Source: Bacteroidaceae bacterium
GTDB taxonomy: Bacteria > Bacteroidota > Bacteroidia > Bacteroidales > Bacteroidaceae
DNA: 45,447 nt
Direction of reading: 5' to 3'
NCBI GenBank assembly: GCA_017517605.1
Contig: JAFWYQ010000007.1
Location: 1-45,447 of the forward strand
The first letter of the stretch is position 1. Each line of letters opens with the position of its first letter. Under the pieces are notes generated by a model, which had not been told where the DNA came from, made no database searches, and saw nothing but the letters and a program-made list of their open reading frames with translations. Below, piece after piece: positions 8,256-28,977 of this stretch. A program made the position numbers and the translations under genes.

Positions 8256-8297
8256 TACCCCACGAGTGGGGTACTTTCAAGGGTCACAGTGACCCTT
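8256..8297. repeat. two back-to-back perfect hairpins after the Omp28-like gene
   Basis: TACCCCAC/GTGGGGTA (8256-8263, 8266-8273; 2-nt loop) and AAGGGTCA/TGACCCTT (8279-8286, 8290-8297; 3-nt loop) are both perfect 8-bp stems. Neither has a downstream T-run, so they may act as mRNA 3'-end protection or be repeat elements, not standard terminators. Confidence 0.65.
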
Positions 8298-8329
8298 AAA
8301 AAGGGGTGGCTATTTGGTTATCGCCATAC

Positions 8330-8406
8330 GTAAGGGCAGACCTGTGTGTCTGCCCGAGAATCAATATCCTCTCCATCTCTGGGCAGACACATAGGGCTGC
8401 CCCTAC
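8330..8406. repeat. dispersed nested palindromic repeat, copy 1
   Basis: Arms of 26 nt (8330-8355 and 8381-8406) are inverted copies with 3 mismatches. Each arm is itself a GGGCAGAC...GTCTGCCC hairpin. A second copy with perfect arms lies at 11249-11324. The repeated core in both is GGGCAGACCTGTGTGTCTG or its complement. No coding capacity. Confidence 0.85.
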
Positions 8407-8462
8407 GGCAATCCTACAAGTTGCGTACAAAGAATACATCAATATAACACAAATAATGAACA

Positions 8463-10049: not shown

Positions 10050-10163
10050 GTTCTGAGTTTTGAGTAACCATTCGGGACTAAACCCCTTCACTCAAAACTC
10101 AGAACTGAGAACTCAGAACTGAGAACTCAAAACTCAAGACTCAAAACTCAGAACTCAGAACTC
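10041..10163. repeat. GAGTTCTGAG hairpin and AACTCAGAACTC array
   Basis: A 25-nt arm (10041-10065) and its inverted copy (10090-10114) differ at one position. The array of AACTCAGAACTGAGAACTC-type units then continues to about 10163. The left arm contains the last codons and the TGA of the upstream gene. No ORF or CRISPR-like spacers are present. Confidence 0.8.
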
Positions 10164-10205
10164 CTCACACAATAACCAACGCCCATCTCCGTTTCTATAC
10201 ACAGG

Positions 10206-11471: not shown

Positions 11472-13265
11472 TTATTCTTTATCAATACCTATTTCACCGT
11501 TCCAATCGAGATACCAATTGGCTTGTGTCTGCAATTTGACACGCAAAGCCTCGTTGTTCACACCTGTACGCATGGCTACACGGTCAGCCAAATAATTGAC
11601 ATCGCTACGACGCAATGCCACACGCATCAAGTCATAGAAACGGGTACCTTCGAATGCGAACTCCAATGCAGCTTCGTTCACAATCATATCCTCCACTGCC
11701 TCGATTTGCTCGTCAAGTGACAACGAAGCAGTGTCAGGCATCTGATAGTAGGCACTGGCTGAACCCCAACCTGAACCACGGCTGTGGATACCGATGGTAT
11801 TGGCAGTTTCAGAAGCCGTTACACCCGGATTGAGAATACCGTAAAGGTCGGTGGGGAAATCAAACTGACGCAAGAAAGCCACCTTGGCAGGATCCTCAGC
11901 ATAACAAGGAATCACTTCGTCTTCAATCACCTTATTGTTCACACCTGAAGCCAAGAACTTATAGGCCATTACAGGATAGCCGGCGCGGTTCAAAGCCTCA
12001 GCCATACGCAAGTAAAGCATGGTGCGGCGATAGATGTGCACGTTACGAGTATTGTGTTTTGAAATGCTCTGCTCTTCAATCTTGTCACCATTTTTGTTTC
12101 TACCGTCTAGCAAATCCCATGCATAGTACAAACGAAGGTCACCACTCATATCCACCTTACTTGACTCCCAAGTAACATTTTTGGGAGCGTAGATAGTGTC
12201 TTTCTCACCCTGCGTATTGGTTTCAACATGGCAATAATACTGAGAAGCAGAGAGGTTCTGCATAGCTGCAGACGGTTTCAAACTGAAGTTGTACTCATTG
12301 TCAGCAGAACTGTTGAACAGGTCTCTCAACTCGCTGTAGTAACCTTCAGACGGGATAGAGTCACCAGGAATCAATGTAATCAACTCTGCTTGTTCTGCAT
12401 ATTCCTCAACGGCATGACCAATTTCACCACTAATAGTAATGCTCTCCCACTCACTGTCAGACCATTGGATACGGTCTGTACCGATAGGATAAGCGGAGTT
12501 CATACCGTTGCGTGTGCTGATGTACTTATAGTAGTTCAACGCAGCCTGGTTGTAGTTCTCGGCCCACAAGTTGAGTTCACCCAACAACAGATAGATGGGG
12601 AAATAGAAGAAGCGTGAATCCAAGCCACGGATGGTTCCGTAAGCCGGCAACTTCTCGTCAGCCAAGGGCATCAAGTCGTTGATAAAGTAGTTACAAATCT
12701 GCTTGATGTCATAGCGGGGATAATCCTTCTCAGACTCTTCCTTGGTCAAGATGGGTTTGTCCACGAAAGGAACACTTCCATAGTTGAGCGCCAATTGGAG
12801 GTAAGTCCATGCACGGAATCCCTTGATAGCCACATACTCGCGCAAGAAGATAGCCTCGTTGCGGTTGTTGCGGAGAGCAGTATCTGCATTGGCAATAAAA
12901 TAGTTACAGTTGTTGATGATGGCATAATAGTCGCGCGGATTATTATACTTGTTGTCCGCATCGATGTCAAACGAAGCCACCTTACGCAAGTCGGCATGAG
13001 TATAATCGGTCACATCCACCAAGTCGCCACGCACCTCTCCCAACAGGATGGTACGGTCGGCAATAGCCTGCAACTTGTTCAACACGCCGATTACCGAATA
13101 GATGGTATCGGCCGCGTTGTCCAACGCATTGTCACCCTCGTAGATCACATACTCCGACTCCTGATTGAAGAAGTCCTCGCATGATGTCAGCCCTACAGCC
13201 GACATTGTCAACAGGCACACGATAAAGGGAATCGTGCGAAGTCTGTTCTTTATATCCTTTTTCAT
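11472..13265 (-). CDS. SusD/RagB-family surface lipoprotein (pair 2)
   Basis: A 597-residue SusD-like lid protein. The lipoprotein signal peptide ends at LTSC-EDFF, with acidic residues directly after the acceptor Cys, as in Bacteroides surface-export signals. The N-terminal TPR-type helical region (about 45-330) contains DNALDNAADTIYSV and YLQLALNYG. The C-terminal signature EAALEFAFEGTRFYDLMR (about 540-557) is typical. It would sit on the extracellular face of the SusC barrel encoded 22 nt upstream and help capture ligand. It is the last gene of the seven-gene cluster and is followed by a strong terminator. The ligand cannot be read from sequence; SusD relatives bind glycans, peptides or other nutrients. 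Confidence 0.92.
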   Translation of the reverse strand: MKKDIKNRLRTIPFIVCLLTMSAVGLTSCEDFFNQESEYVIYEGDNALDNAADTIYSVIGVLNKLQAIADRTILLGEVRGDLVDVTDYTHADLRKVASFDIDADNKYNNPRDYYAIINNCNYFIANADTALRNNRNEAIFLREYVAIKGFRAWTYLQLALNYGSVPFVDKPILTKEESEKDYPRYDIKQICNYFINDLMPLADEKLPAYGTIRGLDSRFFYFPIYLLLGELNLWAENYNQAALNYYKYISTRNGMNSAYPIGTDRIQWSDSEWESITISGEIGHAVEEYAEQAELITLIPGDSIPSEGYYSELRDLFNSSADNEYNFSLKPSAAMQNLSASQYYCHVETNTQGEKDTIYAPKNVTWESSKVDMSGDLRLYYAWDLLDGRNKNGDKIEEQSISKHNTRNVHIYRRTMLYLRMAEALNRAGYPVMAYKFLASGVNNKVIEDEVIPCYAEDPAKVAFLRQFDFPTDLYGILNPGVTASETANTIGIHSRGSGWGSASAYYQMPDTASLSLDEQIEAVEDMIVNEAALEFAFEGTRFYDLMRVALRRSDVNYLADRVAMRTGVNNEALRVKLQTQANWYLDWNGEIGIDKE

Positions 13266-13287
13266 ATTCTTACTTCTTTTTGAATGA

Positions 13288-16200
13288 TTACAAGTTAAGC
13301 TTTACACCGGCCACGATAGAAGCGCTCTTGGGCAATTGTCCCAAGTCGATACCCTGACCCAATACAGAAGATGTCATGGAGAATTCGGGGTCGCTTCCCA
13401 AATACTTGGTAGCAGTCCACAGGTTGTTGCCCTGTACCCATACCTGAATACCCTGCAAGTATTCTGACTTCATCGGCACGTTGTATGACAAAGTCACACT
13501 CTTCAAGCGGAGGTAGCTTCCATCCTCAATCCAACGGTCGCTGAAACGGCTGTTGCCCATAGGATCCTGGAACGTAGCACGAGGCATGTTGGTCTGCTGA
13601 CCTTCATACTGCCAACGGTTCGCCATAGCCACAGTCTGGTTCATGAAGCGGTTTCCACCTTCCAACTGTGAACGCATATAGTTGTACACGTCGTTACCAA
13701 CAGAGTAGTTGAATCCTACATCCAAAGTCACGCGCTTCCAAGTGAGAGAAGAACTGATATTTCCGTAGAAATCGGGGTTGGGGTCACCAATCACTACACG
13801 GTCTTTCTCGTCAATGGCACCACCCTCTTCGGGGTTCTGATTTACAAATATCACGTCACCAGCACCGAAGTAGTTCTTTGTCTGACCATTCTCAGCCAAG
13901 ATATAGAGACCGGCAGCCTCTGCTTGCTCTGAAGTGGCAAATACCCCGTTGGTTTCGTAACCATAGAATACGTTGGCAGCCTGCCCCACCTTCGTCTGTA
14001 TGGTAGCACCATAAATGTCGGTGAGGATTTCGTTTGTCTTGCCTACAACAGGAAGTTTGGTGATTTCGTTCTTATAGTGACCTACGCTGGCACCAATCTG
14101 CCATTGCCAGTTCTTGGTAGCAATCAACTTCAAGTTGAAAGCAGCATCATAACCCTCGTTCTTCAACTCACCGCCATTGGCCCAGTTGTTGGTCAAACCT
14201 GTCAAGATATTGAGCGACTGGTTAGTCAACAGGTCAGAAGTGGTACTGTTGAAGTAGTTGAAGCTCAGGTTCAAGCGGTTGTTGAAGAGGTTGGCCTCCA
14301 AACCTGCATTGAAACGACGGGTAGTCTCCCACTGGATGTTGGTGTTACCGATACCGTCGAATGAAAGACCCGAGATGGCATTCAAGTACTTGGATGCACG
14401 GAAGTAGCTGCGTGCAGCATAGTAGTCGATGTCGTCGTTACCGCTTACATCGTATCCGGCAGTCAAGCGCAAGTAATTGATGGGCTTCACTTTGGCAAAC
14501 CATGATTCGTTGGAAACAATCCAAGAACCCTGGACACCCCAGAATACACCCCAAGGTGCACCGAACATCTTCAAACCATCGGCATCGTTACCGAAACGTG
14601 AAGAACCGTCCAATGACAAACTTGCCTGCAAGTAGTAGCGGCTCATGAAGTCGTACTCGGCCTGTCCATACCATGAAACACTATTCCATGAATCCTTGGT
14701 ACCGGCTGTGGTGGCATTCATCAAGTCTGAGCTGATAAACGGAGTCTTGTCGCTACCGGTGTTGTAACCCAATTGAGAATTGAGTGTATAGTTCTCAATA
14801 TTCACACGCACACCACCGAAAGCATGAATACGGTGAGCACCATAACGGTTGTTCCAATCAAGGCGTGTATCGCTTGTCATTGACTCCTGCTTTGAATAGA
14901 GCGAACGGGTTTCGTTCTCGCGATAGGCATTCACGCTGTTTACATAGTAGTCAGGCACACCGTTAATGGGGATATAGAGCTTTTCGTTCGTATTCACCAG
15001 ATTGTAACTGAAGTGCTCGCTCAAGTACAGATTCTTATTGAACTGATACTTGGGAGTGATTGCGAGATTCAACATCGAAGTTTCGAAACGGTTCTTGTTC
15101 TTTCCTTCAGCATACTCATTCAATGCCAACGGATTCGCAATCTTCCAGTTGTACTTGGTCACATCAGCCAAAGCCTCATCCAGATAATCCTCATCCAGAA
15201 TGTCGTAGTGAGTAGTGGAAAGTACACCACGGCTGAATGTATAAGGACTCAAGAAGGGGCTCTTCGCGTATGCCAAGAAAGAGGGGGCAGTAGAAGTGCC
15301 TTCTTCATAACCGTCAGGCGCACCGTCGTTGCGCAATGAACGAGACTGGTTGGCAAATGAAGCATCGAAACGGACACCCAACTTATTAGTCAATTCAATA
15401 TCGGTGTTGAAACGGATGTTCAAACGGTCTAAATCGTTGCAATCCAATGTGCTCTGTGCAGTGGTATATCCCAAAGAGAGGTTGTAGCTGGCAATGTCAT
15501 CACCACCACTGATGTTGATACCATAGTTCTGGGTAAATGCCTCGCGGTATACATCCTTCTTCCAGTCTGTATCGTTGTGATACTGCTTGTAGTAATAATA
15601 CTCGGGGTCTTCGTTCAAGAACTTGAACTCACGGATTCTGGTACCTGTTGTTCCCAACAAATCAGAAGCATAACCACGATATTGGTCTGCATTCATCACT
15701 TCAATGAACTTGGGCAACAAAGTGACACCCAAAGAGGCATTGGCAGTAATACGGGTTGCCATGGTGTTGCTACGGCGTGTCTTGATGACAAGCACACCGT
15801 TGGCACCCTTGGCACCGTAGAGAGCTGTACCGTTACGCATAAGCTCTACACTCTCGATGTCTGCCGGGTTGATATTTCCCAACACATCGTTGTAAAGTCC
15901 GTCGTGGAGCAACGGACGACCATACTGCTGGTCGATAATCACACCGTCAATGACAACCAAAGGCTGGGCATTCACATTGAGTGAATTCAATCCCTGCACA
16001 AACATGGTGCTACCGACACCCGGGGTTCCGTTGTGGTTGATAGTCAAAGCATAGGCACCCAATTGGCCCTGTACCTCATCCTTGATATTGAAGGCATTGG
16101 TGTAATCGAATTCTGCCGTTCCATAATCGCCACGAACATTGGTCTCAGCGGCATAATCAGCCTTGAAAGTATCACCGTACATCTTGGCATCATGCTGCAG

Positions 16201-16530
16201 TTCGCCATTCATCAGACCAATTCTCACAGGAGAATGGTCAGGACTGGTGATATAGAGAGCTGTTGCAAATGTAGGCACAGACAACGCATACGATCCATCT
16301 TTACCTGTCAAGGCACTGTATCCCTGTATCTCTGCTGCACTTACAAGAGCACCTGCAATAGGATTTCCTGTGGCTGCATCCAACACAGTACCTTTCACTG
16401 TACGTGTGGAGTACTTACTTGCAGTGCGAGTTTTTACACTCACTGCTCCACCCGTTGCTTCCTCCTGTGCTGAGGCACTCAATGAGAATGCCATCAGCGA
16501 AGTTATACCGAATAAAATATATCTATTCAT
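13288..16530 (-). CDS. SusC/RagA-family TonB-dependent transporter (pair 2)
   Basis: A 1080-residue outer-membrane TonB-dependent transporter. The signal peptide ends near SASAQ. A carboxypeptidase-regulatory-like domain (about 43-115, VKGTVLDAATGNPIAGALV) precedes the plug domain (about 150-255, with PLVVIDGVI and NPADIESVELMRNGTALYGAKGANGVL), then the barrel, ending in ASIVAGVKLNL. No STN domain is visible, so direct sigma-factor signalling through an anti-sigma partner is not indicated. The gene starts 14 nt after a fasciclin-lipoprotein gene and is followed 22 nt later by its SusD partner. It is clearly different in sequence from the other SusC in the cluster, so the two pairs probably take different ligands. 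Substrate unknown. Confidence 0.93.
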   Translation of the reverse strand: MNRYILFGITSLMAFSLSASAQEEATGGAVSVKTRTASKYSTRTVKGTVLDAATGNPIAGALVSAAEIQGYSALTGKDGSYALSVPTFATALYITSPDHSPVRIGLMNGELQHDAKMYGDTFKADYAAETNVRGDYGTAEFDYTNAFNIKDEVQGQLGAYALTINHNGTPGVGSTMFVQGLNSLNVNAQPLVVIDGVIIDQQYGRPLLHDGLYNDVLGNINPADIESVELMRNGTALYGAKGANGVLVIKTRRSNTMATRITANASLGVTLLPKFIEVMNADQYRGYASDLLGTTGTRIREFKFLNEDPEYYYYKQYHNDTDWKKDVYREAFTQNYGINISGGDDIASYNLSLGYTTAQSTLDCNDLDRLNIRFNTDIELTNKLGVRFDASFANQSRSLRNDGAPDGYEEGTSTAPSFLAYAKSPFLSPYTFSRGVLSTTHYDILDEDYLDEALADVTKYNWKIANPLALNEYAEGKNKNRFETSMLNLAITPKYQFNKNLYLSEHFSYNLVNTNEKLYIPINGVPDYYVNSVNAYRENETRSLYSKQESMTSDTRLDWNNRYGAHRIHAFGGVRVNIENYTLNSQLGYNTGSDKTPFISSDLMNATTAGTKDSWNSVSWYGQAEYDFMSRYYLQASLSLDGSSRFGNDADGLKMFGAPWGVFWGVQGSWIVSNESWFAKVKPINYLRLTAGYDVSGNDDIDYYAARSYFRASKYLNAISGLSFDGIGNTNIQWETTRRFNAGLEANLFNNRLNLSFNYFNSTTSDLLTNQSLNILTGLTNNWANGGELKNEGYDAAFNLKLIATKNWQWQIGASVGHYKNEITKLPVVGKTNEILTDIYGATIQTKVGQAANVFYGYETNGVFATSEQAEAAGLYILAENGQTKNYFGAGDVIFVNQNPEEGGAIDEKDRVVIGDPNPDFYGNISSSLTWKRVTLDVGFNYSVGNDVYNYMRSQLEGGNRFMNQTVAMANRWQYEGQQTNMPRATFQDPMGNSRFSDRWIEDGSYLRLKSVTLSYNVPMKSEYLQGIQVWVQGNNLWTATKYLGSDPEFSMTSSVLGQGIDLGQLPKSASIVAGVKLNL

Positions 16531-16544
16531 ATCCTTACTACTTA

Positions 16545-18275
16545 TTAGTCAATTACTATTTCTTCTGCATCTCCATGCGGCTTAAAGATGATGGCATCCA
16601 GACGGATGGTCTTCGTATACTTACCACGCATAAAGTCTGTACTCTTTACGTCGCTACCCATTGTCAATGTCACCTGCGAATCTTCATTGGTCAATCCCCA
16701 TGTACATGTAGGAATCACCACATTGCTCTTCAACAAAATGGTATCATGTACATCAGATTGAATTTCCAATTTCTTACCCAAATCCAATGAGTCTACAGTC
16801 ACACCATCCTGTGCCAGCCATTTCAATTTGAAAGAGGCCTGAAGCGGCTTACGCTGCTTGTCGGTAGCACTCGTATCTGCCGCCAAAACAGAAGTCATTA
16901 CTACATAAATATCATAAGGCATATTGGACAATACATCAGGAACATAGAATGTGGCCGATGTGTTTGCACCCGACTTGATTGCAGAAATCTCGATAAAAGA
17001 GTTACCTGACACCTTGTTGTAGTAAGGATTACCCGGACGTACAGCTACGGTAGTAGTACGTGTCTTGGGGTCTTTTAAAACAGCTTTCGAACCATCAATA
17101 TAAGCCAATGACGGACGATCCTCACCTTCGGTCAGAATCATTTGGTTGAAGGTTTGCGATTTGTCGATACTCCATGTGTTGGGTTTCAACAGTTTACCAT
17201 TACTACAGGGAATTTCGTTTACATCATAGAATACACCACCCGGTTCAAACGGTTTGTCGTACTGATAATAGTAAGTATCATAGTTACCATACAGGACGTA
17301 ACGGCTACTATAATGCATGGCATTAGTTGATTTCACTGAATCGTTACGAGTCTTTTCAGGATTAACCGTTTCGCTGAACACCGTACCACGAATAATAGCA
17401 AGACCCGTATACAGTTTAATCAACGAGTCGCGCTTGGACACTTTATCGTCGTAGTTAAAGTAGGTAACATACTCCTCTTCCATGGCATTCCACATATCGT
17501 CCGTAGGAACTATCATCCAATAAGTGGAGTCCTCGTTATTGATATCTCCCACATAATCGAACAGGATATTCTGCAAACGGGTCACAGAATCCAGATAGAC
17601 AGTCTGACCGTTCTCAATACCTCCGGCCACACTCTGTTCCGGAATGAATTTGTATTCGTTGTAGAAATCGAAGAATTCAGCAAGTTTACTCAACTCATCC
17701 ACCTTCTCCAATTGTTCGAGCACGTTGGGCAAATAGTCCAACTGTCCATCAACAGTATACAATATTCCGTTTGCGTGAGGCTGCTGACTATCGAAAGACT
17801 GTTCACCGATTGTATTATTGGTCAACGCCAAATACTTTCCATTCATCATTACGATAGTGTCATTATAAACTGCCGTCTCAGGAGTTGAATGATTGTACAA
17901 CGCAATATGATTCATCACAAACTCCTTGATGGCTCTGTTCTCTTTCTCCTTACGACCTCTCTCCTTGTCCTGGTCATAAATGTCCCTTTGGGCTTTAGCC
18001 TGCTCCGCGGAGAGACTTTCGTTAGTGGGGGCAAACACGGTAAATACCTGAGAGCTGGCCAATACCTTGTCGTAACCACAGTACTCCAACACTGACTTGA
18101 AGTTACTAAAGTTTGCGTCGGTAGAGATAGTCTGCCACAACGACACACCATTTCCCTGCTGCTGCACCTTGTAATGCTCATCCCATTCGTCTGAACAAGC
18201 ATTGAAGGCAAGGGCGGCTAATGCCAGCCCTAATACCTTTGTATATTTCATGTTATATTTCATACGTTTATTCAT
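16545..18275 (-). CDS. fasciclin (FAS1) lipoprotein with C-terminal beta-sandwich
   Basis: 576 residues from the ATG at 18275. ATGs at 18263 and 18251 are also in frame, and the last gives the most typical lipoprotein signal (MKYTKVLGLALAALAFNAC). The acceptor Cys is followed by SDEWDEHY, rich in acidic residues. A first FAS1 domain (about 45-205) has VFTVFAPTNES and a later FVMNHIAL segment. A second (about 210-330) contains YWMIVPTDDMW. The C-terminal third is a predicted beta-sandwich ending in IRLDAIIFKPHG. FAS1 domains mediate adhesion or protein/glycan contacts. Lying directly before a susC gene (14 nt), it probably acts as a surface accessory of pair 2. Confidence 0.82.
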   Translation of the reverse strand: MNKRMKYNMKYTKVLGLALAALAFNACSDEWDEHYKVQQQGNGVSLWQTISTDANFSNFKSVLEYCGYDKVLASSQVFTVFAPTNESLSAEQAKAQRDIYDQDKERGRKEKENRAIKEFVMNHIALYNHSTPETAVYNDTIVMMNGKYLALTNNTIGEQSFDSQQPHANGILYTVDGQLDYLPNVLEQLEKVDELSKLAEFFDFYNEYKFIPEQSVAGGIENGQTVYLDSVTRLQNILFDYVGDINNEDSTYWMIVPTDDMWNAMEEEYVTYFNYDDKVSKRDSLIKLYTGLAIIRGTVFSETVNPEKTRNDSVKSTNAMHYSSRYVLYGNYDTYYYQYDKPFEPGGVFYDVNEIPCSNGKLLKPNTWSIDKSQTFNQMILTEGEDRPSLAYIDGSKAVLKDPKTRTTTVAVRPGNPYYNKVSGNSFIEISAIKSGANTSATFYVPDVLSNMPYDIYVVMTSVLAADTSATDKQRKPLQASFKLKWLAQDGVTVDSLDLGKKLEIQSDVHDTILLKSNVVIPTCTWGLTNEDSQVTLTMGSDVKSTDFMRGKYTKTIRLDAIIFKPHGDAEEIVID

Positions 18276-18338
18276 TTATCGTTGATATGTTAAAGATTCA
18301 TCAGGATTTCACCTTACTTAACTTCTCAACGGTTTATA

Positions 18339-20408: not shown

Positions 20409-20426
20409 GTATTTAGTTTGTTACAA

Positions 20427-22148
20427 TCAATAATTCTTTTCGTAGCTTTCGTTATCACCGGCACCATATATCGGATTCTGCTTCAAGTTCTTGTTTACTT
20501 TCAGTTCATCCTCATGAATCGGCCAAAAGATAGCATCCATCTTGAGTAGCTTGTTCTGGATGATAGAAGTGTTGGAAGTGTATTTCTTCAACACGCTCTT
20601 CAACAAGGTGCTTGTACTGTTGGTACGCATGGCATCGCGTACAAGGTCGAACCAACGCTTTCCTTCGAACATCAATTCACGCTGACGCTCAAGCAATACC
20701 AATTCGGTCATCTGCATCTTGGTTGTGTAATCACTATAAAGCAATGTATCCTTCAGGATTGTCTGGCATACGGAACGCTTATTCACCACATTCACCAACG
20801 TGAAAGCCTGTTTTCTGAGTTCCTCATTGGCAGTTGCCACAGATGCATCACTGGCATCTGACATCTGTTGTACCAAAGCCTCGGCCTTCAACAACATAAT
20901 ATCGGTCAAACGGTACAGGATGAAGTTACATTTGTTTTTACCTTGTGCATAAAGGCTTGAGCCACTATTCTTAATATTATCCGTATTCGATGCATCAATG
21001 ATGGCACTTTCTGTCAAGCACTTCTGTACCGACGGTCCGCTGTAATCGATATTCTCATAGAAGCGCGCATCGTATTTATTCTTGAACACCTTGAATTCCT
21101 TGGAACTGACATCTTCGGTAATAAAGGTAGCAGGCTTTACATAACCTGTTCCTTGAGAACTTCCATACATTGACTCGAATACTCCATTGGAAGGCATATT
21201 TTCGTTCAACTTGTCAAAAGTCAATTCAAAGATACCCTCACGGCTGTTTCCATCGCCAAAAATTGCAGTATAAGCTTCGCCGAATTCTTTAGTACCACCG
21301 CTTGAAGCAGAAGGAATCAATGGATAACCCATCAAATATTCCTTAACCTCTACCTTAGTTCCTGTTGCTTTCTTGATACGGTCTTCCTCCTGTTGTTTCT
21401 TGGAGTCGATTACCAAGTCGGCATAACGGATACAGTTGGCATAGTCCTTTTTCCACAAATACATCTCGCAAAGCATTGCATAGATAGCCTCCTGGGTAAT
21501 ACGTCCAGTCTGGTAGTTTTCCTTGTCCTCGGGATATTTCACCACAGCATCGCCCTTGATGGCCTCAAGATCGTTTATCAAGCTGTCCAACACATCGTAG
21601 AACGGAGTAGCTGGCAAGGCAAACTCCTGGTCGTCATCGGTATAGGCTACAGTAGAATAAGGTACATCACGGAATGTACGGATCAAATAGAAGTAGCACA
21701 GGTCTCTCAAAGCAGACATCTCGGCAATGGTAGCCTTCAATTCTCCTTCAGAAAAGCTGAGGTCACGCTCGGCTACCATCGGAGCAAACTTGATGACAGT
21801 ATTGCATCGGTTAATCACGGCATAGAGAGGATCCCAAGTTGTATAACCATTGGATTCGCGCAGGTTTTCCTGCATGATATTGTCCAAATCCTTGTTATTT
21901 TCAATATTCGTACCGAAAGTGACATTGTCGCTACGGAATTCACCCCAAATCAACATGCGTGACAAAACATCATCGTCCTGCATACGGGCATAACATCCGG
22001 CTACCATGGCATCCACGTCGGCTTTCTCGTTCCAGAAGTTCTCGAAAAGAACCTCATTCTGCGGCTCAATTTCCAGGAAGTCGCCACATGACGAAAGACT
22101 TCCCATCATACCGGTCGCAAGAAGCAAACTATATATTATCTTTTTCAT
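20427..22148 (-). CDS. SusD/RagB-family surface lipoprotein (pair 1)
   Basis: A 573-residue SusD-like lipoprotein. The signal peptide ends SLSSC-GDFLE. The N-terminal region has the canonical FLEIEPQNEV and NRCNTVIKFAP segments. The C-terminal signature is LLERQRELMFEGKRWFDLVR (about 496-515), and the protein ends WPIHEDELKVNKNLKQNPIYG, a classic SusD finish. It should form the substrate-binding lid of the SusC encoded just upstream (65 nt). That gap carries short GTGAAGAGTGAAG-like repeats (22182-22210). Substrate unknown, as no enzyme gene accompanies the pair. Confidence 0.94.
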   Translation of the reverse strand: MKKIIYSLLLATGMMGSLSSCGDFLEIEPQNEVLFENFWNEKADVDAMVAGCYARMQDDDVLSRMLIWGEFRSDNVTFGTNIENNKDLDNIMQENLRESNGYTTWDPLYAVINRCNTVIKFAPMVAERDLSFSEGELKATIAEMSALRDLCYFYLIRTFRDVPYSTVAYTDDDQEFALPATPFYDVLDSLINDLEAIKGDAVVKYPEDKENYQTGRITQEAIYAMLCEMYLWKKDYANCIRYADLVIDSKKQQEEDRIKKATGTKVEVKEYLMGYPLIPSASSGGTKEFGEAYTAIFGDGNSREGIFELTFDKLNENMPSNGVFESMYGSSQGTGYVKPATFITEDVSSKEFKVFKNKYDARFYENIDYSGPSVQKCLTESAIIDASNTDNIKNSGSSLYAQGKNKCNFILYRLTDIMLLKAEALVQQMSDASDASVATANEELRKQAFTLVNVVNKRSVCQTILKDTLLYSDYTTKMQMTELVLLERQRELMFEGKRWFDLVRDAMRTNSTSTLLKSVLKKYTSNTSIIQNKLLKMDAIFWPIHEDELKVNKNLKQNPIYGAGDNESYEKNY

Positions 22149-22181
22149 TTGATTTATGATTTGTAGAGGATGATTTTAATT

Positions 22182-22210
22182 CTTCACTCCTCACGCTTCA
22201 CTCTTCACTT
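22182..22210. repeat. short TTCACTC direct repeats between susC and susD (pair 1)
   Basis: Four near-copies of TTCACT(C/T) or a close variant lie in 29 nt within the 65-nt susC-susD gap, the longest intergenic spacer in the cluster. No function is evident. Confidence 0.45.
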
Positions 22211-22213
22211 TAT

Positions 22214-25200
22214 TTAGAAGTCCACTGTCAAGCCAAACGTATACGAACGTGAACGCGGTGTCTGTGCATTGTCGACAGCAGGACCTTCGCCGCATGAGAT
22301 ATCGGGGTCAACACCGGTATATTTGGTCAACACGAACAAGTTATTGGCACTGGCATAGAGGCTGATTCTCTTCAATCCACTCCATGTCAGATAACGCTTG
22401 GGCAAATCGTAGTTCAACTGCAGATAGCTCATACGCAAGTAACTACCATCTTCAACGAAACGATCGCTTACAAGTGTATTGTAGTTGGTGTTACCATGCA
22501 TGGCACGCGGAATAGAGGTTACGTCGCCCTCCTTACGCCAACGGTAGTTCACAGCCTGGCTCTGGTTGTTGTTACCAGTCATGGCTTCAGCATCGAGACG
22601 AGCCATGTTCAAGATGTCATATCCTACACGGTATACAAACTGGCTGTTCAATCTCCAACGGTCGTAAGTGAATGAGAAACCGAAACCACCGGTCAACTTA
22701 GGCAATGAGTTACCCAAGTAAACGATATCGAGGGCATTGATATTACCATCGTGGTTGATGTCTTCATAAATAGCATCACCACCCATGAACTTGTAGTTCT
22801 TACCTGTACCTTCGTTGGTATAGTTGTACATCATGCGAACGGGCTTGCCTTCTGCATCATATACTACGTCACCATTGGCATTCTTCACAATCGGAGCTGT
22901 TTTACCCGCAGCGAGGAACTCTTGACGCTCTTCAGGAGTCATGTCACGGAATGTTTCGTAATTGTACTGGTAAACACCCTTGCTGCGGAAACCATAGATA
23001 GAACCGAAGGAGTTGTTCACCTGCACACGCTGCAATACGGTACGGTTTTCAAAGTCGTAATCGGGATTTTTGTTTTCAAGTACGAACTCGTCCATTTCAA
23101 GGATAGTATTGCGGTTGTTACCGAAGTTCACATTCATATCCATGTGGAACTTACCAGACTGAACCAAGCGGTTGGTGCTGATATGGAACTCCCAACCTTC
23201 GTTCTTCATCTTACCAGTGTTCTTATAAGGAACATCGGTAAAACCTGCATTGGAAGGAATACGGTATCCAGGCATCAGCATATCGTCAGTAATCTTTTGA
23301 TATCCCTCAACAGTCAACTTCAAACGGTCATCGAAGAATCCGAAGTCCATACCCAAGTTGTAACTTGTAATCTTCTCCCAACGAAGGTCAGAAAGGCGGA
23401 TGTTCAACGGCTTCATGGATGACATATCCAAATAGCGGTCGCCTGAGCCATACTTAGAGGTAAAGAGGTAGTCCTGACCGGGCTGGCTACCGTTGCGGCC
23501 CCAGCTGGGACGTACTGACAACATTGACAACCACTCGCGGGTAGGCTCCATAAACGGCTCATCGATAACGTTCCAACGGAAAGAAAGTGAAGGGAAGTAA
23601 CCCCAACGGTTGCTGGCTCCGAACTTGGTAGTACCATCCATACGCAATGAGAAGTCAACAACATAGCGCGACTTGTAGGCATAGTGTGCGGAGAACGAAT
23701 AGTACATAGAACGTGATTCGTTGTTATTCGAACTCATGCTGGTAATCAAACCACCGGCATCGGGGCTGGCCACACCACCCGAAGGAAGACCCTTACCTGA
23801 AGTGGACTGGCTGCTGGAGTTACCTGTATTCAACTCGAAACGGGCAAGGAACATGGCAGAATGGTCCTTATTCTCGAAAGAAGGAATCAATGTCAACTGA
23901 TGCTTGGTATTGAAAGACACACTCTTCGAACTGCTGGTAGAAGAGGTGTTCACACCGTTACCTGAGTTCCATGAAATGGTTGTCAGTTCGGCAGGATAGA
24001 ACTTGTCACTGTACTGGTTGAAGATGTTCATATACACATTACCGCGATAATCCAAACGCCAAGTGTCATCAGTAAGACCTAACAAACGATAATTGAGAAC
24101 CAACTCAGGAGACATATCATACGTCTTGTTGTGGTTCTTGGCCAAATGTGCACTGGCCACAGGGTTCACGTAACCACGCTGGTCATCGCGGAACACGTCG
24201 TTACCACTTTGCAACATGGTGTAGTAAGCTGAAGTATTCTTACCCGTCACAGGATCCTGCTCATAGATGCTCATATTAGGCATCTTCTTCTGGGCAATAT
24301 CCAACAACGCATCGCTATTCTGTTGATTTTTGGTATAAGTCAACGAGAAGTTGGTAGAAACACGGATACGCTGGCTGATGTCGTAGTCCAAAGCAACACG
24401 GGTTGTGAAACGGTCGAGCTGCTGCTTAATCATGGTACCTGTTTCCTTATCATAACCCGCACTGATACGGAAGGCGGTCTTTTCACCACCACCGGAAATG
24501 TTGACATTATGATTCTGACGGAGACCCCACTGGGTTACAGCATCACGCCAATCGGTATTATTGTTATACTGTTCGTATTCCGAGAAAGTCGGGTCGTAGT
24601 TCAACTCGCGAATGTCACTGGCTGCATCGTCCTGCTCGGGGTTGAAGTAAGCCTCCTTCAACAACATGGTATAGTCGTCACCACTCAACAGGTTGTATCC
24701 CTCAGGCTGATAGGTTGAAGTCAACTTCAATGAATAGCTCAAACGGGGTTTACCCTTGATACCACGCTTGGTGGTCAACTCGATAACACCGGCACCACCC
24801 TGGCTACCATAAACGGCAGCTGCTGCAGCATCCTTCAACACGGTGATAGAGGCAATGTCCTCAGGATTGATGTTCAACAACTCGGCAAAGCGCTCGTTGT
24901 TGGCCGATGCAAGGTCGAATGTACTGAGGTCCACGTTACGCACATTACCATCCAATACAATCAACGGGTTGGCATTGGTCAATGTAGACAAAGAAGCGGC
25001 TCCACGCAAACGCATGGTAGAACCTGATCCCAAGTCACCAGAGTTGGCAATAATGTCGAGACCTGCAATACGTCCCTGCAATGCTTCGTCCACAGAGGTG
25101 ATACCCAATCCCTCGAACTCGGTCATATCCAATGTCTGGGTAGAAATAGAAAGTTCGCGTTCTGGGATAGGCAGGTTATTACCACCCAACTTTCTCTGAG

Positions 25201-25558
25201 CCTTCACTTCCACGGTTTCCAACACCATATCCGAAACCATTACAATGTTGTAAACTTCCTTGTTGATGGGCACAACCTGTGGTTTCATACCCACATACTG
25301 AAACTTCAACTGATTCTTTTTAGAGTCACGGATTCTCATGTTGAAGTTACCATTCATATCGGTCACGGTACTCTCGATAATACGTCCGTTTGCATCAACC
25401 TCGCACACAGCTACAGCCATCAACGGACCCATATCATCACTTACAGTTCCACTTACAGCTGTTATCTGAGCCATCGCAGCCGTGGTGAAGGACAGCAACA
25501 AAGCTGTCACAACGGCCAATCGGCGGAACATTCCTTTATTTACTATATAATGTTTCAT
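22214..25558 (-). CDS. SusC/RagA-family TonB-dependent transporter (pair 1)
   Basis: A 1114-residue TonB-dependent transporter. After a signal peptide (to AAMAQ), a carboxypeptidase-regulatory-like domain (about 35-110, VSGTVSDDMGPLMAVAVCEV) precedes the plug (about 130-265, with RIAGLDI, NPLIVLDGNVRNV and ITVLKDAAAAAVYGSQGGAGVIELTTKRG). The large barrel ends in YTFGLTVDF. No STN domain is seen. It begins 18 nt after the four-repeat fasciclin gene, preceded by a clear GGAGG (25567-25571) at 8-nt spacing, which is unusual here. It should import, with its SusD, a ligand captured at the surface, energised by TonB. Ligand unknown. Confidence 0.95.
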   Translation of the reverse strand: MKHYIVNKGMFRRLAVVTALLLSFTTAAMAQITAVSGTVSDDMGPLMAVAVCEVDANGRIIESTVTDMNGNFNMRIRDSKKNQLKFQYVGMKPQVVPINKEVYNIVMVSDMVLETVEVKAQRKLGGNNLPIPERELSISTQTLDMTEFEGLGITSVDEALQGRIAGLDIIANSGDLGSGSTMRLRGAASLSTLTNANPLIVLDGNVRNVDLSTFDLASANNERFAELLNINPEDIASITVLKDAAAAAVYGSQGGAGVIELTTKRGIKGKPRLSYSLKLTSTYQPEGYNLLSGDDYTMLLKEAYFNPEQDDAASDIRELNYDPTFSEYEQYNNNTDWRDAVTQWGLRQNHNVNISGGGEKTAFRISAGYDKETGTMIKQQLDRFTTRVALDYDISQRIRVSTNFSLTYTKNQQNSDALLDIAQKKMPNMSIYEQDPVTGKNTSAYYTMLQSGNDVFRDDQRGYVNPVASAHLAKNHNKTYDMSPELVLNYRLLGLTDDTWRLDYRGNVYMNIFNQYSDKFYPAELTTISWNSGNGVNTSSTSSSKSVSFNTKHQLTLIPSFENKDHSAMFLARFELNTGNSSSQSTSGKGLPSGGVASPDAGGLITSMSSNNNESRSMYYSFSAHYAYKSRYVVDFSLRMDGTTKFGASNRWGYFPSLSFRWNVIDEPFMEPTREWLSMLSVRPSWGRNGSQPGQDYLFTSKYGSGDRYLDMSSMKPLNIRLSDLRWEKITSYNLGMDFGFFDDRLKLTVEGYQKITDDMLMPGYRIPSNAGFTDVPYKNTGKMKNEGWEFHISTNRLVQSGKFHMDMNVNFGNNRNTILEMDEFVLENKNPDYDFENRTVLQRVQVNNSFGSIYGFRSKGVYQYNYETFRDMTPEERQEFLAAGKTAPIVKNANGDVVYDAEGKPVRMMYNYTNEGTGKNYKFMGGDAIYEDINHDGNINALDIVYLGNSLPKLTGGFGFSFTYDRWRLNSQFVYRVGYDILNMARLDAEAMTGNNNQSQAVNYRWRKEGDVTSIPRAMHGNTNYNTLVSDRFVEDGSYLRMSYLQLNYDLPKRYLTWSGLKRISLYASANNLFVLTKYTGVDPDISCGEGPAVDNAQTPRSRSYTFGLTVDF

Positions 25559-25566
25559 ATCTGAAT

Positions 25567-25571
25567 CCTCC
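25567..25571 (-). promoter_or_regulatory. strong Shine-Dalgarno for susC (pair 1)
   Basis: AAGGAGG with GGAGG 8 nt before the ATG at 25558. Most genes in the window lack such a site. Confidence 0.6.
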
Positions 25572-25576
25572 TTCTC

Positions 25577-28276
25577 TTATTTCTCTAATGTTAATCCAGC
25601 TATTCTATCGACTTCCTGTTTCCAAGTCTCACCGTAGTTCTTATGTTTCAATACACCATCAATTTGGTGAACTACAGCATCAGATTCCATATAAATCGTA
25701 GAGGTCTCATCCAACTTACTGTCTGTAGCTGTAAACCAGAATTCACGACAAACCTGATTGAAGTTAGCGGGATTCTCTGTAATGACATTACAAGACTTAC
25801 CTACCTGGTCGATAATCTGAAGGCCATTATGATCGCAGTTTACGGTCAAGCCAAAGAAACGTCCAGATGCCTTGTTCACAAGCATAGATTCGTAAGGTGT
25901 ATTAACCGGTGCGGCACCAATGAGAACCAAATTGTCCTGCAAATGGTAACGTACAAATTCGGTAAGACGTTGCTTAATCACCTGAGATGCCACTTTAGCC
26001 CATGCAAGTGAATCTGCATCTTCTGATATGACTGCCACCTCATCCCAATAGTCGAGGTCGTCCCAAGTAGGAAGTGAGTCGTTATCGATCAAGAAACGAA
26101 TAGAATCATTATGGGGAACATAAACCGTATAGTTGTAATTCTCGAACAGACGGACATTCTTGTTGTCTGTACCGGCACATATATACTTACCCGTTCCCAT
26201 TTCGCTAATCATAAGGTCGCTACCACCAATGAGTTCATAGAACTCCTTATAATCAGGATTCTCGGCCAATACATTATATACCGACTTGTCAGAAGCCAAC
26301 GGCATCTGCTCATTGATTTCGTAGGAACGACCGTTACCGGTTTCGTATTTGTCATAACGTGCAACTACGGCCAACGGCTTGTTATAGGCATGTTGCCACA
26401 AACCATATACTTCGATGTTGTCTTTATCTGTATAAACAACACGGACGGGAGTTCCTCCCTTGGTCTTGTAATACTCATTACCATCCTCGATGTCGCCTAC
26501 GATAATCAGTTGATCCACCAAATCCTCCAAACGGTCCTTTACTACAGTTTGGCTCTCACCCTCTTGTATATTAGAGGTAAGAAGTGTTCCCTTAGTAAGG
26601 CTTCCGTCAGCCTCGATGGTACAATTATAGCGAAGCGCCATCACTCTCTGGTTTGTCTTATCGTATGAGAACTCCAGCATTGTGGGTTGTGTTGTTCCGT
26701 AGCTGGTAGGTTCTACATACTGCAACATAGCATTGTTAGTGGGCAACAACAAACTATATTTTGTATCCATAGAGTTCAGATAAGGTAAGAAATCGAGATT
26801 CTCGAATGCCCAATAGATGACATTCATCGTCTCCTCGCGAATCTGTGCGGGGAAAGCTACACTGAAGTATGAACGCGGAGCAAATACCTTGTCAATAACG
26901 AATACCACACCGTTGCAACCCATGTAAGAGGTTACGATATTATCCTTTGTAACTCCCAAAGGCAACTGGGTAGAAGCATCGAGGATATTCTCTTTGAACT
27001 TCGTAGGTACCTTATCGGTCAGCGTTTCGACCATGTTGGCAGCGAGCAAATCCTTCAGAGTAAGCGAAGGGATGCTGTCGTAGTCTTTAAACTGGTCTTT
27101 CAACTCCTTACCTTCGTTATCCCACCATTCCTTCACTGCCTCGTCAGTAGGAACGAGCATCACACCAGCCTCGTAATACATGGTGTAGTCCGATGAATTG
27201 GGATAATATGTATTCCATCCCGGATCAAAGGGAAGCAGGTTACGCACAGTCTTACCATCAGGAGTTTTGTTGTTTGAGGTATTTGCGCCATTATTGCCCT
27301 TCACAGCACTCCAATCACTGAAGTAGCGAAGCACAAACACAGAGTCATTACCACCATACAGACGCTGATACTCCTTAGTGGCTTCCTCGTTATAATAAGG
27401 TGCAGAAAAACGATCAAGCATTCTTGACCAAATGCTGGTAGAATTTTCCGATGCCTTTGCCTGCTGACGGATAAACTCTGCCATATTCACCGTAGGTTCG
27501 ATAACACCGGACACTTTATGAATGTAACCGTTCTTGCAGGTAATATCACGTTCGAGGATTTTCCGGCCATTCACCCAAGCATCGTCTGTAGTTGCAAAGG
27601 AGTCGCGCGAAATCTCTTGCAAATCCTCGTCCAGAATATCGTGATGGTCCATAAAGGCCGGCAAGAAATGAATCATTGGAGCAGGCGTGTTGTCCTTCAG
27701 CAATACAATACCTTGAGACTTGTTACGATATTTTGCCCAAGGGTCGCTGTGACCAGCCACATCTTCACCCGGATACATCGGCATATCGGCAGGCAGGATG
27801 GATGAAACGGAGTCGTAAACACTGACAGCAGACGGGCGACGCATACACTTACCCAAACGTTCGCCAAAATCGGGACCACTTACATTGGAGAGCAACTCTA
27901 CCAAATAGGCATTGTTCACCATAGCACTGTTGAACAGCAACTTCTGTTTTGCAGGACTCGCTTTCAAATCCTCATAACTTCGTACTCCCCAAGAATTGGT
28001 CCTATACCACTCTTCCCAAGCTTCGTCGTTGGCAACGAACAAAGTTTTTGAACCCGTCTGGCTCAGTACATCGTACAGCCCCAGATCATTAATCAAATTG
28101 AGAGTCGTCTGATAATTACCCTCTTCGGCCAACCGCTCATAAATGGAGTTTCCGAGCCATGAAGGCTGTCCTGTAAGAGCATCATCCTCACAAGAAGGCA
28201 ACATCATAGCACCACCCACCAAGCAGGCAGCAAAAGCTGATCTACAGAACAAATGTCTCATAGTTTCGCTTTTCAT
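25577..28276 (-). CDS. large four-repeat fasciclin (FAS1) lipoprotein
   Basis: 899 residues, the first gene of the cluster. The lipoprotein signal ends MMLPSC-EDD. An alternative ATG at 28261 (MRHLFC) would still leave a usable signal. Four FAS1-like repeats can be placed by their conserved strand motif: KTLFVANDEAW (about 77-87), GVMLVPTDEAV (371-381), YSLLLPTNNAM (507-517) and YTVYVPHNDSI (716-726). Each is followed by a GVVFVIDKV-type closing strand, for example about 456-464. FAS1 proteins are usually adhesive or ligand-binding, and no enzyme motif is present. Its leading position and 18-nt link to susC suggest an obligate partner of pair 1. The upstream region has a candidate operator but no clear TAnnTTTG promoter. 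Confidence 0.82.
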   Translation of the reverse strand: MKSETMRHLFCRSAFAACLVGGAMMLPSCEDDALTGQPSWLGNSIYERLAEEGNYQTTLNLINDLGLYDVLSQTGSKTLFVANDEAWEEWYRTNSWGVRSYEDLKASPAKQKLLFNSAMVNNAYLVELLSNVSGPDFGERLGKCMRRPSAVSVYDSVSSILPADMPMYPGEDVAGHSDPWAKYRNKSQGIVLLKDNTPAPMIHFLPAFMDHHDILDEDLQEISRDSFATTDDAWVNGRKILERDITCKNGYIHKVSGVIEPTVNMAEFIRQQAKASENSTSIWSRMLDRFSAPYYNEEATKEYQRLYGGNDSVFVLRYFSDWSAVKGNNGANTSNNKTPDGKTVRNLLPFDPGWNTYYPNSSDYTMYYEAGVMLVPTDEAVKEWWDNEGKELKDQFKDYDSIPSLTLKDLLAANMVETLTDKVPTKFKENILDASTQLPLGVTKDNIVTSYMGCNGVVFVIDKVFAPRSYFSVAFPAQIREETMNVIYWAFENLDFLPYLNSMDTKYSLLLPTNNAMLQYVEPTSYGTTQPTMLEFSYDKTNQRVMALRYNCTIEADGSLTKGTLLTSNIQEGESQTVVKDRLEDLVDQLIIVGDIEDGNEYYKTKGGTPVRVVYTDKDNIEVYGLWQHAYNKPLAVVARYDKYETGNGRSYEINEQMPLASDKSVYNVLAENPDYKEFYELIGGSDLMISEMGTGKYICAGTDNKNVRLFENYNYTVYVPHNDSIRFLIDNDSLPTWDDLDYWDEVAVISEDADSLAWAKVASQVIKQRLTEFVRYHLQDNLVLIGAAPVNTPYESMLVNKASGRFFGLTVNCDHNGLQIIDQVGKSCNVITENPANFNQVCREFWFTATDSKLDETSTIYMESDAVVHQIDGVLKHKNYGETWKQEVDRIAGLTLEK

Positions 28277-28977
28277 AACATCTGTTTAATTAGTTAATTT
28301 ATTATTTAATTTTCTTAATTTTTCACATTCACCATTGTTTTTCGTCGCTCATGGAAGCACAATCGAAAAACCATCCTTCATCAAACACGTCTATCTATGG
28401 GCTAATCGGGACACTGCTCCCCAGTTGGGATATAGTGTCAAGAAAGTCACTTTTCGTATTACATAGTTTCACAAACATTAAGTTTTGGTTAATAAACGTC
28501 GTTGATATTTTCTTAATTATTTAATAGCATGTGACATGTCACAACACTTTTTAACGGGGCTAAGATAACGCAAACTTCCCAAAAAAGCCAAGTATTCAAT
28601 ATTGTTTTCTTATCATTTTAGCTTTTTTAACAGTACAACATCCACACCCTCCCTCTGTGTGCGATAACGATATTTGTTCTTTATGGAGAATGGCACTCCA
28701 TCTACGATAAAGATTTAGGGTATATTCACAATGAAAACAAGGAGTCTTTTTAATCTTTTCGCGGATTTGTATTTGTAAAAAAACAAGACATATCCTATAT
28801 CCCGCCCCATAACAGGCACAGGACTTATTGTATAAAAGCACGCATTCCAAGTGCCTGGAGGAATGCATTCTTCCGTACTGAAGATTATCATTCTTTCAGC
28901 CGAAAGAATACAATCATTCGATACAAGTGAAAGATTCAAATCTTCAAAGCGTAAGAACCGTATCTTCATTCAGCGAC
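28277..28977. other. non-coding region upstream of the fasciclin/SusCD operon
   Basis: A 700-bp gap with no credible gene. The part nearest the operon (28277-28600) is A/T-rich and contains the palindrome at 28530-28543. No canonical TAnnTTTG box was found on the leftward strand; the closest is a degenerate AATGTTTG. The distal part (28842-28970) has several small inverted repeats, including GCATTCC/GGAATGC (28842-28848 / 28860-28866) and ATTCTTTC/GAAAGAAT (28890-28897 / 28902-28909). Confidence 0.6.
28530..28543. promoter_or_regulatory. perfect palindrome TGTGACATGTCACA, candidate operator
   Basis: A 14-bp perfect palindrome about 255 bp upstream of the first fasciclin gene. It resembles a CRP-type half-site pair (TGTGA/TCACA) but with a 4-nt spacer in place of 6. 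Binding protein unknown. Confidence 0.45.

What the first reader, a model, noticed from the sequence alone, without database searches (positions are those of the whole stretch)
11472..28276. Seven-gene operon combining two SusCD pairs with three fasciclin lipoproteins and no enzymes
The order is FAS1 x4 lipoprotein - SusC - SusD - FAS1 lipoprotein - FAS1 lipoprotein - SusC - SusD, with gaps of 14-65 nt, no divergent gene and a strong terminator at the end. Classic polysaccharide loci add glycoside hydrolases, surface glycan-binding proteins and a sigma/anti-sigma or hybrid sensor gene; none are here. I infer a surface system in which FAS1 proteins capture a ligand or partner cell/matrix component and hand it to two distinct SusCD importers. 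The ligand could be a glycoconjugate, peptide or host matrix component. FAS1 genes near susCD occur in other Bacteroidota, but I know of no characterised function.
Basis: partly seen in the sequence, partly recalled or inferred. Interest (0 to 1): 0.75.

Follow-up and report, generated by a model that had tools for sequence, protein, structure and literature searches.

The report
Fasciclin-SusCD glycan uptake operon
A seven-gene bacterial operon for two outer-membrane importers and three surface proteins with fasciclin domains is one copy of a conserved module that in relatives often sits among plant-cell-wall-degrading enzymes, so it is most likely a sugar-polymer capture and uptake machine and not a new kind of system.

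Summary
In detail: window 28276-11472 (minus strand) encodes FAS1-SusC-SusD-FAS1-FAS1-SusC-SusD, gaps 14-65 nt, one terminator-like hairpin, no recognised enzyme or regulator beside it. The layout is not special to this locus. It is complete in 57 of 80 loci found by the first SusC, apparently cut, split or masked in the rest; it recurs in the same genome (contig 53) and in other families of the class, although 11 of 40 further loci go from D1 straight to an F3-like gene. Relatives carry plant-cell-wall enzymes beside it: GH51 directly upstream in 9 of 69 loci, GH43, PL11, PL4-like, GH88 elsewhere. It resembles the published B. thetaiotaomicron rhamnogalacturonan-I core (two SusCD pairs, SGBP BT4167, a DUF5108 protein); two same-genus F2 counterparts are FAS1-FAS1-DUF5108. 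Best reading: an enzyme-less copy of a plant-glycan binding and import module, its FAS1 lipoproteins acting as surface glycan-binding proteins. The ligand is not shown; arabinan or rhamnogalacturonan I lead. New member of a known kind.

The parts
25577..28276 (-). F1: FAS1 lipoprotein, first gene of the operon, 3 (possibly 4) FAS1 repeats
   Evidence: PF02469 57.9 bits; 3 repeats by iterated profile; Cys29 after a signal peptide, invariant in alignment A6
22214..25558 (-). C1: SusC/RagA TonB-dependent transporter, pair 1
   Evidence: TIGR04056 675 bits; 54% and 49% identical to own-genome copies on contigs 53 and 99
20427..22148 (-). D1: SusD-like lid lipoprotein, pair 1
   Evidence: PF07980 82.9 bits, PF14322 52.4 bits
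18339..20408 (-). F2: FAS1-FAS1-C-terminal-domain lipoprotein; counterpart of FAS1-FAS1-DUF5108 proteins in two same-genus genomes
   Evidence: PF02469 51.8 bits; 2 FAS1 repeats in 99 of 99 family members; Cys23 invariant in A3; DUF5108 in L116 and L117 counterparts
16545..18275 (-). F3: FAS1 lipoprotein with a further C-terminal region
   Evidence: PF02469 35.3 bits; Cys27 invariant in A4; profile reaches periostin
13288..16530 (-). C2: SusC/RagA TonB-dependent transporter, pair 2
   Evidence: TIGR04056 557 bits
11472..13265 (-). D2: SusD-like lid lipoprotein, pair 2 (divergent)
   Evidence: PF07980 27.7 bits, cut-off 23.1; 41% to the D2 of contig 53
11408..11445 (-). terminator-like hairpin after D2
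   Evidence: 16 pairs plus T tail; the scan found 17 sites against 15.1 expected, so the site class alone is weak
28560..28591 (-). putative promoter (TTGG, 20 nt, TATCTTAG), about 285 nt before F1, conserved in L024
   Evidence: block TTATCTTAGCCCCG at -292 (window) and -284 (L024); resemblance to the Bacteroidota -33/-7 consensus is recalled; the exact pattern TTTG-N18-22-TANNTTTG has 4 matches in the window, none here
28531..28542 (-). palindrome GTGACATGTCAC beside the putative promoter, possible operator
   Evidence: only copy in the window, 0.07 expected; GTGACNNGTCAC upstream of F1 in 3 of 73 loci, 0.02 expected in shuffles

Best explanation
The operon is an enzyme-less copy of a conserved capture-and-import module for plant cell-wall glycans, the same module that serves rhamnogalacturonan-I loci; the leading ligand candidates are pectic (arabinan or rhamnogalacturonan I). 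Proposed working: F1, F2 and F3 are lipid-anchored on the outer face and act as surface glycan-binding proteins. F2 and F3 carry FAS1 domains as spacers or docks and a C-terminal domain that binds the glycan. They concentrate polymer or oligosaccharide at two TonB-dependent SusC barrels, each with its own SusD lid (C1-D1 and C2-D2), which import different fragments of the same polymer. Cleavage is done by enzymes encoded elsewhere in the genome (PL11 and GH88 genes exist on other contigs). Shown here: gene content, order, lipoprotein-type N-termini, conservation, and enzyme neighbours of homologs. Inferred: surface exposure, glycan binding by FAS1 proteins, the division of labour between the two importers, and the ligand.
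For: (1) Order F1-C1-D1-F2-F3-C2-D2 complete in 57 of 80 loci fetched by C1, no reordering seen; present in 18 of 20 same-family regions chosen by FAS1 hits; complete with positional best hits in L153, L156, L159 and L225 from other families. (2) In the window's genome 10 of 10 Fasciclin matches lie in susCD loci, and 8 of 15 full-length SusC genes are FAS1-linked. (3) Enzymes beside homologs: GH51 immediately upstream in 9 of 69 loci (one a fragment) and GH43 in 2 of 69 (Pfam for representatives; PDB MgGH51 E 2e-83). A protein with two GH43 stretches upstream and Glyco_hydro_cc 145 nt downstream of the L025 copy (C1 81%). PL4-like lyase, GH106, GH28, GH115, GH88, GH2 and esterase around L156; FGGY kinase about 0.4 kb from F1 of L159, followed by isomerase-like, aldolase-dehydrogenase and RhaT genes. 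PL11 and GH88 near the same-genus copy L117. Own genome: two PL11 (contig 27), PL22-like and GH43 (contig 7), GH88 (contig 4), HTCS (contig 53). (4) F1-positive genomes have PL11 more often: 20 of 31 against 7 of 30, Fisher p 0.002; by genus 12 of 17 against 3 of 13, p 0.025; controls GH92 16 of 31 against 23 of 30 (p 0.06, the other way) and strong GH32 12 of 31 against 14 of 30. (5) Published B. theta RG-I PUL BT4145-83: two SusCD pairs BT4164/65 and BT4168/69 with SGBP BT4167 (PMC8002723, one passage; PMC3243724, passages); a DUF5108 protein lies within BT4164-69 (PMC10434189, one table passage), and F2 counterparts of two same-genus genomes are FAS1-FAS1-DUF5108. (6) Accessory lipoproteins assemble on SusCD in levan and dextran utilisomes (PMC7618045, abstract and Discussion).
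Against: No enzyme or sensor is linked to this copy, so the ligand is inferred from relatives. 11 of 31 F1-positive genomes lack PL11, and neighbours vary (GH92 in L143 and L155, CotH in L129, BspA-type repeats in L130, unclassified secreted proteins in many), so the module is not tied to one substrate. 58 of 69 upstream neighbours are not GH51 or GH43. The order is not absolute: 11 of 40 loci go from D1 to an F3-like gene, and F1- or F2-type genes occur without SusCD (L219-L221). The window's F2 C-terminal domain has no Pfam match even at E 0.5, and its family only weak ones beyond DUF5108 (CBM_6 0.004 in 2 of 47, Endotoxin_C 0.0004 in 1 of 47; PDB 0.11 and 2.2). The BT4163-69 match rests on published descriptions, not on a sequence comparison made here.
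Confidence: 0.72

Rival explanations
1. The module imports a non-glycan ligand (peptides, or host or cell-matrix components), with the FAS1 proteins as adhesins; SusCD homologs such as RagAB import peptides.
For: FAS1 domains are adhesion domains in animals (recalled), and the profiles match periostin and TGFBI. The contig 53 copy has a subtilase upstream. C1 and C2 match RagA among other SusC homologs in PDB. No enzyme is linked to the window copy.
Against: Recurrent plant-glycan enzyme neighbours in homologs of several families; published RG-I role of the same layout in B. theta; best PDB match of both SusC proteins is 8aa4, an entry named only SusC homolog, ahead of RagA.
Confidence: 0.12
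2. The ligand is another plant or microbial glycan (for example arabinogalactan, xylan, beta-1,3-glucan or mannan), not RG-I or arabinan; the module is a general chassis whose specificity drifts. This overlaps with the best explanation and differs in the ligand.
For: Neighbours include GH92 (L143, L155), GH127 (L233), GH115 (L158), Glyco_hydro_cc (L229) and GH2; PL11 is absent from 11 of 31 F1-positive genomes; the window, contig 53 and contig 99 copies fall in three separate clades.
Against: All 9 GH51-linked loci lie in the 54-leaf clade that holds the window, and the two GH43-linked ones outside it: arabinose-cleaving families (recalled).
Confidence: 0.35
3. The window copy is a decaying remnant of a locus that lost its enzymes.
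For: The relative at 81% C1 identity has enzymes on both sides, and the window copy has none.
Against: All seven frames are intact, and a promoter-like block is conserved with L024, which sits at the same rpsD-rpoA-rplQ-PLP enzyme site, also without an enzyme upstream; its contig ends just after D2.
Confidence: 0.08

Closest known systems
B. thetaiotaomicron rhamnogalacturonan-I PUL BT4145-BT4183 (core about BT4163-BT4169)
   Same: Two SusCD pairs (BT4164/65, BT4168/69) with SGBP BT4167 between them and a DUF5108 protein in BT4164-69; F2 counterparts of two same-genus genomes are FAS1-FAS1-DUF5108.
   Different: The window copy has no lyase, other enzyme or HTCS, and its own F2 C-terminal domain does not match DUF5108 in Pfam. 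Sequence homology to BT4163-69 was not tested; BT4163 as F1 is a guess from its place.
Levan and dextran utilisomes of B. thetaiotaomicron (SusCD + SGBP + GH complexes)
   Same: SusCD core with additional surface lipoproteins (PMC7618045, abstract and Discussion).
   Different: Two SusCD pairs, three FAS1 lipoproteins, no surface enzyme; assembly unknown.
Own-genome module on contig 53 (L010, L014, L015)
   Same: All seven genes in the same order, C1 54%, C2 48% identical.
   Different: Has a hybrid two-component regulator (HTCS) next to it and a subtilase upstream.
'unk' rhamnogalacturonan-induced PULs of Xylanibacter ruminicola KHP1 and Segatella bryantii TF1-3
   Same: PULs not predicted by earlier bioinformatics, most induced on rhamnogalacturonan, SusCD-like proteins shared by the two species (PMC11107044, passages).
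   Different: Gene content not visible to me (figures and supplements not held), so identity with this module is only a lead.

Membership tests
SusCD-based polysaccharide utilisation locus (PUL) | adjacent susC and susD homologs | tested here: met
   two pairs
SusCD-based polysaccharide utilisation locus (PUL) | surface glycan-binding lipoprotein encoded next to susD | tested here: inconclusive
   F2/F3 in the SGBP position with lipoprotein-type N-termini; binding not testable
SusCD-based polysaccharide utilisation locus (PUL) | linked CAZymes | tested here: not met
   none recognised in the operon or beside it; present beside some homologs
SusCD-based polysaccharide utilisation locus (PUL) | linked sensor-regulator (HTCS, ECF sigma/anti-sigma) | tested here: not met
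   none recognised beside it; HTCS present at the contig 53 copy
B. theta RG-I PUL core (BT4163-69 type) | F1-C1-D1-F2-F3-C2-D2 gene order | tested here: inconclusive
   window order certain; B. theta order known from descriptions only; same order in same-genus L117, and in L116 with D1 masked by an antisense ORF and D2 cut
B. theta RG-I PUL core (BT4163-69 type) | DUF5108 domain in the protein between the SusCD pairs | tested here: not met
   no Pfam match for the window F2 C-terminus at E 0.5, although it was aligned in one set with the DUF5108 members at 17-18% identity
B. theta RG-I PUL core (BT4163-69 type) | linked rhamnogalacturonan lyases | tested here: not met
   none recognised in the window parts scanned; six PL11 matches elsewhere in the genome, on contigs 5, 27, 49 and 83
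FAS1 (fasciclin) domain family PF02469 | score above the curated cut-off | tested here: met
   F1, F2 and F3 all above 22 bits
Utilisome | stable complex of SusCD with accessory lipoproteins | not testable with these tools
   structure prediction switched off

The most novel reading that the evidence does not exclude
The seven products form one double-transporter surface complex in which FAS1 repeats are the docking scaffold: F1 joins the two SusCD barrels, and F2 and F3 present different parts of one branched plant polymer to two importers of different specificity, making FAS1 proteins a recognised class of SGBP and explaining why the seven-gene order has been kept across families of the class.
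Probability: 0.25. Interest if true: 0.6.

Novelty: new member of a known kind. Interest (0 to 1): 0.35.

Why it matters
It ties a common but little-discussed gene set (FAS1 lipoproteins beside SusCD) to plant-glycan uptake and shows the order of seven genes in at least three families of the class (f1, f3, f5). That gives a direct test of what FAS1 domains do in SusCD systems and whether two SusCD pairs share one set of binding proteins. In this genome (80.5% complete) 8 of 15 full-length SusC genes are FAS1-linked. In the open-licence papers searched, no study of FAS1 in SusCD loci was found in seven searches that paired fasciclin or FAS1 with SusD, PULs, Bacteroidetes, Prevotella, SusC, TonB-dependent, or Bacteroides and pectin. 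I looked at passages of three of the hits: a legend naming a FAS1 domain protein in a Gramella PUL (PMC4891872), one fasciclin gene in an Acidaminobacter bin (PMC7661554), and a highly transcribed FAS1 gene in a symbiont with SusCD pairs (PMC10199937); the other hits were seen as listings only.

Tried and rejected

A first association test (module 'seen' against PL11, 17 of 18 against 10 of 43) was rejected because I had picked the module genomes from strong hits; the version with the F1 profile on all 61 genomes is weaker (20 of 31 against 7 of 30). Plain Fasciclin presence gave 21 of 33 against 6 of 28 for PL11, 17 of 33 against 22 of 28 for GH92, and 13 of 33 against 13 of 28 for GH32. For GH32 I counted only genomes with E below 1e-20, because PF00251 also catches weak, probably GH43, matches. 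F1 presence is a marker, not proof of a whole module (L221 has F1- and F2-like genes without SusCD). The F2 C-terminal profile was meant as a marker but also finds F2-type proteins without SusCD, so it was not used for counting. The phylum search scored at most 3 candidates per genome at E 1e-20, so its 6 of 247 may be low.

Upstream-neighbour classes p1199, p660, p873 and p819 (45 of 69 loci) have little or no Pfam content in the representatives scanned and were not resolved. 13 of 69 had no match to any reference, among them argC-like genes and the PLP enzyme (read from the sequence, recalled). 11 of the 80 loci were dropped from that count because no F1 or no upstream ORF was held. A relaxed lipobox pattern was no test, as it also hit 85 of 99 SusC C1 proteins.

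Full report
What is there. On the minus strand, 28276-11472, lie seven intact ORFs with gaps of 18, 65, 18, 63, 14 and 22 nt. Pfam and NCBIfam give FAS1, SusC, SusD, FAS1, FAS1, SusC, SusD. A terminator-like hairpin follows D2, and the gene upstream of F1 (a Cys/Met-metabolism PLP enzyme) ends in its own hairpin. F1, D1, F2, F3 and D2 start with signal peptides that end in a cysteine followed within three residues by an acidic one in all five (CEDD, CGDF, CDDN, CSDE, CEDF), the pattern of surface lipoproteins in Bacteroidota (the export rule is recalled). The cysteine is invariant in the alignments of F1 (46 rows), F2 (47) and F3 (48).

Proteins. An iterated FAS1 profile grown on the family finds two repeats in F2 (2 in 99 of 99 members), one in F3 (1 in 87 and 2 in 5 of 92) and three in F1 (3 in 54, 4 in 29, 2 in 4 and 5 in 4 of 91). 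F2 has in addition a C-terminal domain of about 230 residues, and F3 a C-terminal region. Profiles of F2 and F3 match periostin at E 2.7e-37 and 1.3e-31, through their FAS1 parts. Of the 47 F2 C-terminal domains, 2 match DUF5108 (best 1.6e-112), 2 CBM_6 weakly (best 0.004) and 1 Endotoxin_C (0.0004); the window's own matches nothing; the family profile finds only MiXBM (0.11) and a xanthan lyase (2.2) in PDB. Full-length F2 counterparts of same-genus genomes G008 and G036 read FAS1, FAS1, DUF5108.

Same genome. All 10 Fasciclin matches in this 2.97 Mb, 80.5%-complete assembly fall in susCD loci: the window; a second complete seven-gene copy on contig 53; F1-C1-D1-F2-F3 up to the end of contig 99; F-C-D-F strings on contigs 7 and 4, both at contig ends, so possibly cut modules; and F3-C2-D2 on contig 27, where a weak F2-type match lies in the cut ORF before F3. 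Of 15 full-length SusC genes 8 are in these loci; a ninth (contig 84) follows a fragment with a below-cut-off FAS1 match. Neighbours of the paralogs are an oligogalacturonate-lyase-like protein and GH43 (contig 7), GH88 (contig 4), two PL11 rhamnogalacturonan lyases (contig 27), an HTCS and a subtilase (contig 53), and DUF6057 and PD40 proteins (contig 99).

Other genomes. A scan of named genomes with the SusC C1 alignment kept the best 80 of 327 relatives, nearly all labelled Prevotella, Prevotellaceae, Bacteroidaceae or Bacteroidales, with Xylanibacter rodentium and muris, Hallella seregens, Paraprevotella and Candidatus Liminaster caballi; some genomes give two loci. 57 of 80 show the complete order; the other 23 are contiguous parts of it, apparently cut by contig or flank ends, split, or masked by antisense ORFs; L097, which seemed to lack F1, has it. 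Of 20 same-family regions chosen by strong FAS1 hits 18 carry the module and two (L122, L123) do not; in L116 (D1) and L120 (F1) one slot is masked by an antisense ORF. In 40 further regions chosen by F1 or F2 matches, 11 go from D1 straight to an F3-like gene, and L219-L221 have F1- or F2-type genes without a module. Outside the family, an even draw of the phylum gave F1 in 6 of 247 genomes including the window's own; L153, L156, L159 and L225 have the complete order. G062 has a reduced variant (L162). So the module is common in this family, uncommon in the phylum draw, and shared by at least three families.

Enzymes beside relatives. Upstream of F1, 9 of 69 loci have a GH51 homolog (one a fragment) and 2 of 69 GH43 (Pfam on representatives); the GH51 genes end about 15-117 nt before F1. 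The window's nearest relatives are L024, L025 and L026 (87, 81-82 and 72% C1 identity; support 0.995). L024 lies at the same chromosomal site with no enzyme upstream; its contig ends just after D2. L025 has a protein with two GH43 stretches and p1199 upstream and a Glyco_hydro_cc enzyme 145 nt downstream of D2. All 9 GH51-linked loci fall in the 54-leaf clade that holds the window. In more distant copies, a PL4-like rhamnogalacturonate lyase overlaps the end of D2 in L156, with GH106, GH28, GH115, GH88, GH2 and an esterase around, and an FGGY kinase gene starts about 0.4 kb from F1 of L159, followed by isomerase-like, aldolase-dehydrogenase and RhaT genes, an apparent rhamnose catabolic set. 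PL11 flanks L105 (BLAST; Pfam place), L114 and L117. Neighbours that do not point to pectin are GH92 (L143, L155), CotH (L129), BspA-type repeats (L130), an alginate-lyase-like protein (L137), and housekeeping genes. Pfam was run on chosen neighbours only, not on all.

Association test. In 61 family genomes F1 (profile A6, E below 1e-20) is in 31 and PL11 in 27: 20 of 31 against 7 of 30, p 0.002; by genus 12 of 17 against 3 of 13, p 0.025. Controls: GH92 16 of 31 against 23 of 30 (p 0.06, the other way), strong GH32 12 of 31 against 14 of 30. This is moderate, uncorrected for descent beyond genus, and 11 F1 genomes lack PL11.

Known systems. The B. thetaiotaomicron RG-I PUL BT4145-83 has two SusCD pairs, BT4164/65 and BT4168/69, and SGBP BT4167 (PMC8002723, one passage); disruption of its HTCS gene BT4178 left 58.5% of wild-type growth on RG-I (PMC3243724, passages); a table row for BT4164-69 in an iron-response study lists SusC, DUF5108, hypothetical proteins and a TonB-dependent receptor (PMC10434189, one passage). 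The simplest reading is that BT4163-BT4169 is this module, with BT4166 and BT4167 as F2 and F3; I could not compare the sequences. In two rumen relatives a PUL missed by prediction was the most induced on rhamnogalacturonan (PMC11107044, passages), a lead only.

Verdict. The system is a conserved glycan-uptake module, and this copy stands without enzymes. The ligand, the role of FAS1 domains and the reason for two importers remain open and testable.

Noticed in passing
Only one to three loci per genome were looked at, and these genomes also have an F1 match elsewhere.
   Followed up: partly
L025:3031-6630 and homologs upstream of F1 in 16 of 69 loci: A secreted protein family of about 1,200 residues (p1199; L025 member without Pfam or PDB match) recurs directly upstream of F1; p873 (11 loci) and p660 (14 loci, divergent) behave alike.
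   Followed up: partly
window 28531-28542: Perfect palindrome GTGACATGTCAC just downstream of a promoter-like block shared with L024, where one central base differs; could be a regulator site.
   Followed up: partly
L024; flanks of G021, G029, G047, G052 (L129, L136, L131, L133): The module lies near rpsD-rpoA-rplQ in the window, its nearest relative and four genomes of two other genera, though their C1 proteins are not close to the window's.
   Followed up: partly
window 2862-10907: Plus-strand genes convergent with the operon: a protein with a weak type IX secretion tail match, a Cleaved_Adhesin protein, an unclassified 528-aa protein and an outer-membrane beta-barrel protein.
   Followed up: no
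window 12970-12942: A perfect sigma-70-type match (TTGACA, 17 nt, TATAAT) on the minus strand inside D2; the scan shows no excess of such sites.
   Followed up: no
window 33106-33136: S4-Bacteroidia ribosomal protein leader before rpsD.
   Followed up: no
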